From positions 1-34,514 of the forward strand of contig JAFGQN010000038.1 in the NCBI GenBank assembly GCA_016935665.1: a DNA stretch of 34,514 nt, given 5' to 3'. Under the pieces are notes generated by a model, which worked only from the letters and a program-made list of their open reading frames with translations, searched no databases and was not told the origin of the DNA. This document shows, one piece after another, positions 31,894 through 34,514 of this stretch. The DNA comes from Deltaproteobacteria bacterium (GTDB taxonomy: Bacteria; Myxococcota_A; Polyangia; JAAYKL01). The translations under genes were made by a program, and so were the position numbers. How positions within the stretch are numbered: position 1 is the stretch's first letter; the number at the start of each line of letters is the position of its first letter.

Positions 31894-32460
31894 TTAGAGT
31901 TTTTCGATTTCTTCTTCGGAAAGTCCGGTGTACTGCGAAATTTTTGCGACAGGCTCCCCATTGGCTTTCATAGTGCGGGCAATTTGCACTATTCCTTCCT
32001 CCCTTCCTTCCTCCCTTCCTTCCTCTCTTCCTTCTACGAGACCTTTCTCCATTCCTTCAGCAAGCCCCTTCTCCATTCCAGCGGCCCGTCCTTTCAGTTC
32101 GGCTTCTTCGTACCATCCCTGAACTGTTTCTCGAAGCATCGTACTGACCTCCGTTAAATCCGCAAATGCGGGAATATCATCTATATTTTTTTTCGCAGGG
32201 CGCAGCACTCTGTCAAACCATCCCGCCAGTGCCCGCGAAAGAGACTGCTGCTCGGGCAGTTTGAGCCAATGCAGCATCTCTTCAACCACGGTGAGTATAG
32301 CATGTTTTTCGACCGCATTTTCAAGGGCAAAAAGCGCGGCCACCAGGTTCTTTGAGGCCTTCATTGAAGATGGCAGACGGCAGTCCCCGGCGATGGCGCC
32401 TTCGTCGATGAGCAAAAGGGACAATCCGTTATTTCATATGAGGTTGCAGTTGGCTGGATA
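31894..32460 (-). pseudogene. decayed Rpn-type (PD-(D/E)XK nuclease) gene, C-terminal part
   Basis: A reading frame of 176 codons to TTG 32424 resembles the C-terminal half of Rpn/transposase-31-like proteins: helical LFALENAVEKHAIL, a middle LRETVQGWYEEAEL and a characteristic tail of EG(L/R)EEG repeats (GMEKGLAEGMEKGLVEGREE...) ending in a small helix-turn-helix-like SQYTGLSEEEIEKL. The N-terminal nuclease domain is missing. In the same frame a TGA lies at 32434-32436, with a few non-conserved codons before it. So it is truncated or interrupted, not a full gene. Rpn proteins are mobile, recombination-promoting nucleases with repeat-number variation in this tail. Confidence 0.7.
31990..32035. 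repeat. 12-bp tandem repeat coding EGRE
   Basis: ccttcctccctt-type 12-base units in the Rpn remnant, reading Glu-Gly-Arg-Glu on the minus strand. Short but almost perfect; typical of variable tails in Rpn-like genes. Confidence 0.65.
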
Positions 32461-32475: not shown

Positions 32476-34353
32476 ATGTATGGTCAATTGAAAAAGAAGC
32501 ATCAGGATGACCTCAACAGGTTGGGCGATTTATTTGGTCCTCCCAGTGAGATAGCCCATTTTTACATTCAGCCCAATTGCCAGCAGCTCAATCCCGCGGA
32601 CAAAGATGAAGATCAGGCAGTGTCCTATGTACGAAGTCCGGTTCTGGAAACCATCAGCAGCTTTTTAAGTGGTGAAATCGCCGCCCAGCAGGGAGATAGA
32701 CACATGTTTGTTTTATCCGACGCCGGCATGGGTAAAACCTCGCTTTTGATTATGTTGAAGCTGACCCATATGAGCGAATTCTGGCCCGGCAGCGTGCGGT
32801 GTGCGCTTTTGAAAATAGGCGAAGATACGCTGGCGGAAATCGAACAGATAGAAGGAAAGCAGCAAACCGTTCTTTTGCTCGATTCTCTGGATGAAGACCC
32901 GACCGCGTGGGCTGATGTAAAAACACGTCTCATTTCATTGCTCGACGCGACAAGGCATTTCAGGCGCGTGATTATTACATGCAGAACACAGTTTTTTCCC
33001 ACCACTGAGACCGATGTGTTCGAACGACCGGGATATGTGAAAGTTGGCGGATATGCGTGTCCTTCCATTTATCTCTCGTTGTTCAGTGACAAACAGATTG
33101 ACGAATATCTTCACAAACGGTTTCCCAAAACCATCTGGCATGCCCTAAGTCTGAAATCCCATCCAAAGTATGAGAAATCAAAGCGGGCCGTGGAAAAGAT
33201 GCGATCGCTCAAATGCCGTCCCATGCTGCTTTCCCACATCGAAAGCATTCTGGAGGGCAATCGCGAGTGCGAAACCGAATATGATATGTACGATATGCTG
33301 ATTCAACAATGGCTGGACAGGGAGGAGATAAAGTCTCGACGGCGAAAAGACCGGATAACCGCCAATGAGCTCAAAACATCATCCGTGGTCATTGCCGCGG
33401 CCCTTCAGCGGACAGGACGTCGTGTGTTATCAAGGGAGGCGCTGCTTCGCCTGTGTGATGAAACCCCGGTTATTAAAAAGCTGGAGTTTTTAGACATAAG
33501 CGGACGCTCTCTTTTAAACCGGACCTCAGAAGGGAATTTTCGGTTTGCGCACTACACCATTCAGGAGTTCCTGGTCGCCAGAGCTTTGGCTGAGGGTGAA
33601 ATATCCGATGATATGCATAAACTGCACATCACCCCATTTATGGGATTAATATACGCCCAGCGACTGACGCGCCATACAGGATATGAACTGCTCTGGATAC
33701 CGGGGGGAGAATTCCAGATGGGGAGTAAGGAAAGCAACGATGAAAGTCCTGTTCACAACGTACATATCAAGGGTTTTTGTCTTGGAAAATACCCTGTCAC
33801 AAATGAGCAATACAAAAGATTTATGACGGCGAATCCAGGGGTGCACGAACCGGATTTCTGGGGTCACCGCAAGTTCAATCATCCGCAACAGCCCGTCGTG
33901 GGAATCAGCTTTGAGGACGCCAGACAATACTGCGAATGGGCAGGAATGCGATTGCCATCTGAAGCGGAGTGGGAATATGCGTGTCGTGCCGGAAGTACAA
34001 CTCAATACTGTAATGGGGATAGTGAATCCGACCTGGAACGGGCAGGCTGGTTCGCCCAAAACTCGGGGAAAAGTACGCATTCAGTGGGGGAAAAGGAACC
34101 AAATCGATTTGGACTGTACGATATGCACGGAAACGTGTGGGAATGGATAGAGGATGACTGGCACGACAATTATAACGGCGCGCCTGTGGATGGGAGGGCG
34201 AGGGTGAATGAATCGAGGGCCGATTTCCGAGTATACCGCGGTGGCTCGTGGAACTATGATGCCAGGTATTGTCGGTCGGCATACCGCGGCGGCAGGCGCC
34301 CAGACTTCCGCTACGTCTTTCTCGGCTTTCGTCCGGCGAGGTCGATCCCTTGA
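32476..34353 (+). CDS. NACHT-type NTPase fused to C-type-lectin/FGE-fold domain
   Basis: 625 residues. N-terminus 1-75 unassigned. NACHT/STAND NTPase about 76-380: Walker A SDAGMGKTSLL (81-91), Walker B TVLLLDSLDED (131-141), sensor-like VIITCRTQF (165-173) and FRFAHYTIQEFLVARA (355-370), the usual C-terminal NACHT helix. From 402 to the end is a formylglycine-generating-enzyme/C-type-lectin fold: LLWIPGGEFQMGS, MRLPSEAEWEYACRAG, GLYDMHGNVWEW and RGGSW. The first catalytic cysteine of true FGE is replaced (Y594 in SWNYDARYC), so it is a binding domain, not an FGE enzyme. The last ~40 codons look like a DGR variable region. The frame is open for about 37 codons before ATG 32476 and reads protein-like (SYEVAVGWIAGLAK), so the 5' end may be truncated. 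No clear ribosome site. Confidence 0.9.
   Translation: MYGQLKKKHQDDLNRLGDLFGPPSEIAHFYIQPNCQQLNPADKDEDQAVSYVRSPVLETISSFLSGEIAAQQGDRHMFVLSDAGMGKTSLLIMLKLTHMSEFWPGSVRCALLKIGEDTLAEIEQIEGKQQTVLLLDSLDEDPTAWADVKTRLISLLDATRHFRRVIITCRTQFFPTTETDVFERPGYVKVGGYACPSIYLSLFSDKQIDEYLHKRFPKTIWHALSLKSHPKYEKSKRAVEKMRSLKCRPMLLSHIESILEGNRECETEYDMYDMLIQQWLDREEIKSRRRKDRITANELKTSSVVIAAALQRTGRRVLSREALLRLCDETPVIKKLEFLDISGRSLLNRTSEGNFRFAHYTIQEFLVARALAEGEISDDMHKLHITPFMGLIYAQRLTRHTGYELLWIPGGEFQMGSKESNDESPVHNVHIKGFCLGKYPVTNEQYKRFMTANPGVHEPDFWGHRKFNHPQQPVVGISFEDARQYCEWAGMRLPSEAEWEYACRAGSTTQYCNGDSESDLERAGWFAQNSGKSTHSVGEKEPNRFGLYDMHGNVWEWIEDDWHDNYNGAPVDGRARVNESRADFRVYRGGSWNYDARYCRSAYRGGRRPDFRYVFLGFRPARSIP
34237..34353 (+). 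other. candidate DGR variable region
   Basis: Encodes residues 588-625 (RGGSW to the stop). In lectin-fold DGR targets the last ~40 codons of the lectin domain vary. Here N593, Y594, D595, Y598, Y603, G605, G606, R608, F611, Y613, V614 and F615 stand at positions that are Asn in typical template repeats of this fold (from memory), and all twelve codons end in C or T, as expected for AAY codons with first/second-base adenine changes. The constant residues between them (RYCRSA, R..., PD, LGFR) are those of the family. Confidence 0.65.
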
Positions 34354-34371: not shown

Positions 34372-34389
34372 CCACCCCTTTCAAGGTGG
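34372..34389. repeat. small hairpin just after the NACHT stop
   Basis: ccacc/ggtgg stem with an eight-base loop, 18 bases past the stop and after a repeated ccttga stretch. A hairpin soon after the variable region is a known feature of some DGR targets (for example in Bordetella phage), so it is noted here as possible. Confidence 0.35.
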
Positions 34390-34430
34390 TGCCAAAATAC
34401 AGATGAAAAACAGCTGATTCATAAGGAAAA

Positions 34431-34511
34431 AAATGTAGTTGCGGGCTTTATGCCCGCTTTTTATTGTTCAATCGCGCTTTTCAAGCGGGGATAAACCCCG
34501 CAACTACATTT
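34431..34511. repeat. palindromic multi-hairpin element (MITE/REP-like)
   Basis: Outer arms aaatgtagttgcggg (34431-34445) and cccgcaactacattt (34497-34511) are a perfect 15-base inverted repeat. Between them are two further hairpins, gcgggc/gcccgc at 34441-34457 and gcgggg/ccccgc at 34485-34501. The motif resembles part of 27604-27670 (cggggataaacc), so it is probably a dispersed family. Confidence 0.7.
34441..34464 (+). terminator. Rho-independent-type terminator
   Basis: gcgggc-tttat-gcccgc, six GC-rich pairs and a five-base loop, then ttttttatt. It lies 88 bases after the NACHT stop and would end that transcript. It is also the left hairpin of the palindromic element at 34431-34511. Confidence 0.75.
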
Positions 34512-34514
34512 AAT

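What the first reader, a model, noticed from the sequence alone, without database searches (positions are those of the whole stretch)
34237..34353. NACHT-lectin gene ends in a probable DGR variable region
Twelve codons in the last 40 (N593, Y594, D595, Y598, Y603, G605, G606, R608, F611, Y613, V614, F615) sit where Asn is usual in template repeats of this fold, and every one ends in C or T. That is what adenine-specific mutagenesis of AAY codons leaves. The fold is the C-type-lectin/FGE scaffold used by DGR targets, and the flanking constant residues (RGGSW, CRSA, PD, LGFR) match. A NACHT NTPase fused to a diversified binding domain would be a variable-recognition conflict or signalling receptor. 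The sequence is direct; the DGR reading is inference. I saw no template repeat or reverse transcriptase in the window.
Basis: partly seen in the sequence, partly recalled or inferred. Interest (0 to 1): 0.9.

Follow-up and report, generated by a model that had tools for sequence, protein, structure and literature searches.

The report
NACHT receptor with orphan DGR-type tail
A bacterial immune-receptor-like protein ends in a segment that looks rewritten by a targeted-mutation machine (a diversity-generating retroelement), but neither the machine nor its template is in the assembled genome, and receptors of this kind are already known.

Summary
In detail: all twelve codons named are there and end in C or T. 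Eight of them could not do otherwise (N, D, Y, F), so the codon argument alone is weak (p about 0.016 for the four free codons). Stronger tests support the DGR reading. The tail fits real FGE-type DGR templates better than any of 21 held-out true variable regions or 30 other FGE tails, and against its closest homologue it differs at 10 of 13 template-N columns but 1 of 19 constant ones, as DGR pairs do and ordinary orthologues do not. Yet no template repeat and no DGR reverse transcriptase is in the 95%-complete assembly, by a calibrated search. The contig ends 161 bp after the gene, inside a MITE-like repeat, where the cassette would sit. The same genome holds other DGR marks: three FGE tails (C131, C48) with an adenine-mutagenesis footprint and a broken avd (C172). 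Best reading: a NACHT/STAND NTPase with a non-enzymatic FGE-type lectin sensor whose binding face was written by a DGR that is unassembled or lost. A new member of a known kind.

The parts
32476..34353 (+). NACHT/STAND-FGE gene, 625 aa
32695..33123 (+). P-loop STAND/NACHT NTPase region (residues 74-216), Walker A 32719-32742, Walker B 32872-32895; no N-terminal effector domain recognised
   Evidence: homologue beside a BREX-1 system in Paraburkholderia
33685..34341 (+). FGE-sulfatase / C-type-lectin domain (residues 404-622); first copper Cys replaced by Tyr594, so not an FGE enzyme
34237..34332 (+). DGR-type variable region RGGSW...LGFR, 32 codons; template-N columns at residues 593-595, 598, 605, 606, 611, 613-615 (603 and 608 also possible)
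34372..34514 (+). MITE-like repeat (143 of 187 bp) starting 18 bp after the stop codon; 18-bp TIR CCACCCCTTTCAAGGTGG; truncated by the contig end. Full copy at G000:C33:771-957
31894..32424 (-). C-terminal remnant of an Rpn-family nuclease/transposase gene, divergent from and abutting the NACHT gene
   Evidence: TIGR01784 positions 166-273 of 273

Best explanation
The gene encodes a NACHT/STAND-type NTPase whose sensor is a C-terminal, non-enzymatic FGE-type C-type-lectin domain. The last 32-codon block of that domain (34237-34332) is a DGR variable region: at some point a template repeat carrying AAY codons at about ten positions was reverse-transcribed with random bases at its adenines and pasted in, setting the ligand-binding face. 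The template and the reverse transcriptase are not in the assembly. They lie either just beyond the contig end, in unassembled sequence, or the cassette has been lost and the tail is a frozen product. By analogy the lectin face would bind an invader molecule and the NTPase would oligomerise and signal. Shown: domain layout, fold, variable-region signature, absence of TR/RT from the assembly. Inferred: the diversification event, ligand binding, immune role.
For: Same ungapped 32-aa frame as bona fide DGR templates in 30 loci found by TR pattern, most with an IGxxxSQ RT in the same stretch. Best template-compatibility score of all tails tested (constant 0.95, NNY 10/10 against the L146 template). 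Against its nearest homologue (Desulfosarcina plasmid, 60% identity over that FGE stretch) it differs at 10/13 N columns and 1/19 constant columns, inside the range of DGR pairs (N columns 62-100%, constant 5-21% at similar divergence) and outside that of ordinary orthologues (15-36%). PDB sequence and fold match to TvpA, a solved DGR variable protein. The same genome bears DGR footprints: C131a/C131b tails differ at 19/26 first/second bases but 1/13 third bases of N columns, p = 1e-4, and a truncated avd follows an FGE gene on C172. A homologue of the NTPase half sits beside BREX-1 with a different C-terminus.
Against: No TR by blastn, by A-aware patterns over 94 bp or 70 bp, or by a generic FGE-TR pattern, although 14/14 real VR-TR pairs would have passed the A-aware test. 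No DGR RT by RVT_1 or a DGR RT profile. No avd directly after the gene. Nine of 30 FGE tails from other loci also reach 11-12 of 12 NNY codons. Only one homologue was near enough for the variability test. No reads were available.
Confidence: 0.77

Rival explanations
1. Active DGR beyond the contig end (a sub-case of the best explanation): avd, RT and TR follow the gene within about 2 kb, unassembled because of the MITE-like repeat.
For: In reference FGE-type DGR loci the TR lies about 0.3 to 1.7 kb downstream of the VR, often past the RT; here only 161 bp are known after the stop and the contig ends inside a multicopy repeat. Assembly 95% complete.
Against: A whole RT plus TR would have to be missing from 8.16 Mb; no contig begins with the rest of the MITE. 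A MITE sits where avd starts in the C172 and G014 loci (about 80 bp after the stop).
Confidence: 0.33
2. Relic (the other sub-case): a DGR once wrote this tail and the C131/C48 tails, then was lost; the receptors are now fixed, germline-like variants.
For: No TR/RT in the assembly; C131 and C48 tails share third bases at N columns yet have 6-8 third-base differences in 19 constant codons, more drift than in any VR-TR pair checked (0-1 non-template-A mismatch in 96); avd on C172 is truncated.
Against: Absence rests on a fragmented assembly; the drift could also mean separate TRs. The window tail itself has no sibling to date it.
Confidence: 0.44
3. Ordinary FGE-family C-terminus, never DGR-edited; the pattern reflects family-wide preference for N, D, Y, F, G at these columns.
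For: Constant residues are shared with FGE proteins not linked to a template; 9 of 30 other tails reach 11-12 of 12 NNY; NYD after RGGSW also occurs in conserved FGE orthologues of two family members.
Against: Top template-compatibility of 52 tails; DGR-like divergence from the nearest homologue; free codons biased to NNY against the gene's own usage.
Confidence: 0.23

Closest known systems
STAND/NACHT-CLec DGR targets of Thiohalocapsa PB-PSB1 (DGR 3, DGR 6; clade 5D), PMC10907252
   Same: NACHT or nSTAND NTPase fused to a C-terminal CLec/FGE domain carrying a VR; DGR 3 targets likewise have no recognised adapter domain
   Different: There the targets lie in DGR loci with RT and TR, and most target genes vary in metagenomes; here no RT/TR in the assembly and no population data
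FGE-type (FGS) DGR targets of VMAP ternary systems, PMC7159879
   Same: FGE/CLec domain with variable C-terminus tied to NTPase conflict systems
   Different: Those are vWA-FGE fusions with MoxR and VMAP partners; the window gene is a single NACHT-FGE protein. G000:C131 resembles them more
TvpA, Treponema denticola DGR variable protein (PDB 2y3c)
   Same: Same fold (Z 31.4, rmsd 2.1 over 219 residues) and same RGGSW...LGFR frame at the C-terminus
   Different: TvpA has no NTPase; its DGR is known
Antiphage NACHT/STAND proteins (Avs, bacterial NACHT; weak NCBIfam hit to EruA)
   Same: P-loop STAND NTPase with variable C-terminal sensor; homologue in a BREX-1 island
   Different: No N-terminal effector found; sensor is CLec; function untested

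Membership tests
DGR target (variable protein) | CLec/FGE domain with variable residues at the C-terminal ligand-binding face | tested here: met
   Pfam FGE E 2e-59; AlphaFold model pLDDT 95, matches TvpA Z 31.4 and Mtd Z 14.8
DGR target (variable protein) | Variation among homologues concentrated at template AAY columns with constant residues kept | tested here: met
   10/13 vs 1/19 against the nearest homologue; DGR-like, unlike ordinary orthologues. One pair only
DGR cassette | Template repeat nearly identical to the VR, mismatches at template A | tested here: inconclusive
   None in the assembly by a search that 14/14 real pairs would pass; but 161 bp to contig end and 95% complete assembly
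DGR cassette | DGR reverse transcriptase (IGxxxSQ) | tested here: inconclusive
   Only group II-type RTs (QGxxxSP or fragments) in the assembly; assembly incomplete
DGR cassette | avd accessory gene by the target | tested here: inconclusive
   Not in the 161 bp available; only a broken avd on C172
DGR target (variable protein) | Within-population variation at the VR | not testable with these tools
   No reads or strains at hand
STAND/NACHT receptor | P-loop NTPase with Walker A/B and a C-terminal sensor | tested here: met
   Walker motifs read directly; Pfam nSTAND3/NACHT below gathering score; FGE sensor
STAND/NACHT receptor | N-terminal effector domain or adjacent effector gene | tested here: inconclusive
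   No domain found in residues 1-73; downstream side is off the contig
Formylglycine-generating enzyme | Two active-site cysteines binding copper | tested here: not met
   Only the second Cys (C599) is kept; the first is Tyr594 in the alignment to T. curvata FGE

The most novel reading that the evidence does not exclude
The genome carries a frozen repertoire: several sensor tails (C90, C131a, C131b, C48) written by DGRs that have since been lost, so that once-adaptive lectin receptors have become fixed, inherited immune receptors.
Probability: 0.28. Interest if true: 0.55.

Novelty: new member of a known kind. Interest (0 to 1): 0.42.

Why it matters
It adds a compact NACHT-CLec protein to the short list of prokaryotic immune-like receptors whose binding face is set by targeted mutagenesis. 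With three other footprint-bearing tails and no RT/TR in the assembly, this genome would let one ask whether DGR-made receptors persist after the mutator is gone.

Tried and rejected
blastn of the VR against the genome: only itself plus chance hits. Sibling VR in C131: shares constant residues but not synonymous sites with the window tail, so not the same template. The 34372-34514 hairpin as a DGR IMH/cruciform element: rejected, it is a dispersed MITE-like repeat. avd-like Pfam hits on C173, C65 and C172:9212: below cut-off and probably 23S_rRNA_IVP-type helix bundles; the real avd remnant is C172:5336-5656. Relatives by protein in genome contigs and viral contigs: none. TR of the window tail in 20 genomes of own and related species: none. 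Simple NNY counting as proof: rejected, it does not separate DGR from other FGE tails well enough.

Full report
What is there. The window is the whole of contig C90 (34,514 bp) of a 249-contig, 8.16-Mb draft genome estimated 95% complete. The last gene, 32476-34353 (+), encodes 625 aa. Residues about 74-216 carry a P-loop NTPase: Walker A DAGMGKTS at 82 and Walker B LLLDSLDE at 133, with weak Pfam matches to nSTAND3 and NACHT. Residues 404-622 are an FGE-sulfatase domain, E 2e-59. A model of this domain (pLDDT 95) matches PvdO, the Treponema DGR variable protein TvpA (Z 31.4) and FGE enzymes, and at Z 14.8 the Bordetella phage DGR protein Mtd. It is not an FGE enzyme: of the two copper-binding cysteines only C599 is kept and the first is Tyr594.

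The observation. The twelve codons exist as described and all end in C or T. Eight are forced by the amino acid. The four free codons give p = 0.016 against the gene's own usage, and no other start in the gene with the same spacing exceeds 10 of 12. Because the positions were picked after the fact, I sought independent columns.

Calibration with real DGRs. Two pattern scans for FGE-type template repeats returned 5 viral and 25 genomic loci. Most hold an IGxxxSQ reverse transcriptase within the fetched stretch and templates such as RGGSWNNNARNCRSANRNRNNPTNRNNNIGFR. In 14 of 14 VR-TR pairs in these loci and G014, at most 1 of 96 positions differs at a non-adenine template base. The window tail is in the same ungapped 32-residue frame. 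Scored against every template (own locus excluded), it ranks first of 52 tails (constant positions 0.95; 10/10 NNY at template-N codons of the Neolewinella template). Plain NNY counts separate the groups less well: true VRs 10-12 of 12, other FGE tails 5-12, with 9 of 30 at 11 or more.

Variability. The nearest FGE relative found is on a Desulfosarcina ovata plasmid, 60% identical over the aligned FGE stretch. The two tails differ at 10 of 13 template-N columns and 1 of 19 constant columns, at 61% identity in the 70 residues upstream. DGR-linked pairs at 60% or more upstream identity differ at 62-100% of N columns and 5-21% of constant ones; ordinary orthologue pairs differ at 15-36%. One other pair, in relative G047, is DGR-like too and was not followed. 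This is the best evidence that the window tail is a DGR product, though it rests on one pair.

Machinery. It is not in the assembly. RVT_1 finds three RTs, of group II type: PQGAVISP on C145, QGGPLTP on C186, and an N-terminal fragment on C129. A DGR RT profile built from G014 and G031 finds no others. No template is found by blastn, by A-aware patterns with up to 3 mismatches, or by a generic FGE-TR pattern that does recover the known templates of G014 and G031.

Why absence is not decisive. The contig stops 161 bp after the stop codon. From 34372 on it is a repeat 97% identical to C33:771-913, where the full element is 187 bp with 18-bp perfect terminal inverted repeats, a MITE-like element. 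In the reference loci the template lies 0.3 to 1.7 kb downstream of the VR, so here it would lie beyond the break. Large-scale DGR mining also notes that remote targets are missed in fragmented assemblies (PMC8144416).

Other DGR marks in this genome. C131 has a MoxR/MadB-like AAA gene followed by two FGE-ended genes; C48 has a third related FGE tail. Between the two C131 tails 19 of 26 first/second bases but only 1 of 13 third bases of the N columns differ (p = 1e-4), while constant codons differ only at third bases, 8 of 19. That is an adenine-mutagenesis footprint followed by synonymous drift. The N columns used for this test were set with these tails and the template frame in view, so the p-value is a guide. 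C172, a prophage-like contig, has an FGE gene followed by a truncated avd (NCBIfam DivGenRetAVD, E 1e-7, profile positions 2-54 of 104) and no RT. The window tail does not share a template with C131/C48 (third bases differ at 7-10 of 13).

Mechanism. The NTPase half has one plasmid homologue (32% identity over 358 columns), beside a BREX-1 system in Paraburkholderia sabiae, with a different C-terminus. This fits a modular STAND receptor with swapped sensors. STAND/NACHT-CLec DGR targets are described and proposed as antigen sensors (PMC10907252), and FGE domains with DGRs in ternary conflict systems earlier (PMC7159879). I therefore read the gene as a STAND receptor whose lectin face was written by a DGR (0.77). 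Within that, a lost DGR (0.44) is somewhat likelier than an unassembled one (0.33). Ligand, effector and immune role are inference.

Standing. The kind is known, so this is a new member. The orphan state, with four footprint-bearing or VR-like tails and no mutator in the assembly, is the unusual part, and it depends on closing the genome.

Noticed in passing
L115:1206-5937 (G000:C131) and L268:5052-5777 (G000:C48, - strand): Two tandem FGE-ended genes after a MoxR/MadB-like AAA gene, and a third related tail on C48, show an adenine-mutagenesis footprint (N columns change at first/second base, third base kept) with synonymous drift elsewhere.
   Followed up: partly
L040:4062-5656 (G000:C172): Prophage-like contig with an FGE target gene followed 83 bp later by a truncated avd and no RT: a DGR remnant.
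   Followed up: partly
L109:2154-5407 (G014:C187): Complete FGE-type DGR (target, avd, TR, IGSLTSQ RT) in a genome of the same class; serves as positive control.
   Followed up: yes
window:31894-32424: Rpn-family nuclease gene lacks its N-terminal 165 profile positions and stops at the NACHT gene's start: a possible insertion junction of the NACHT-FGE gene.
   Followed up: no
L213 and L236 (G047:C77 and C6): FGE pair 83% identical upstream differs at 13/13 N columns and 1/19 constant columns, DGR-like, but its NNY count is low (8/12), so a different template codon make-up may apply.
   Followed up: no
L270:5102-7779 (Paraburkholderia sabiae plasmid): Homologue of the NTPase half with a different, unannotated C-terminus, two genes downstream of BREX-1 brxL.
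   Followed up: partly
window:34372-34514; G000:C33:771-957, C33:18511-18620, C170:53355-53417: 187-bp MITE-like repeat with 18-bp perfect TIRs and a strong internal hairpin, dispersed in the genome.
   Followed up: partly
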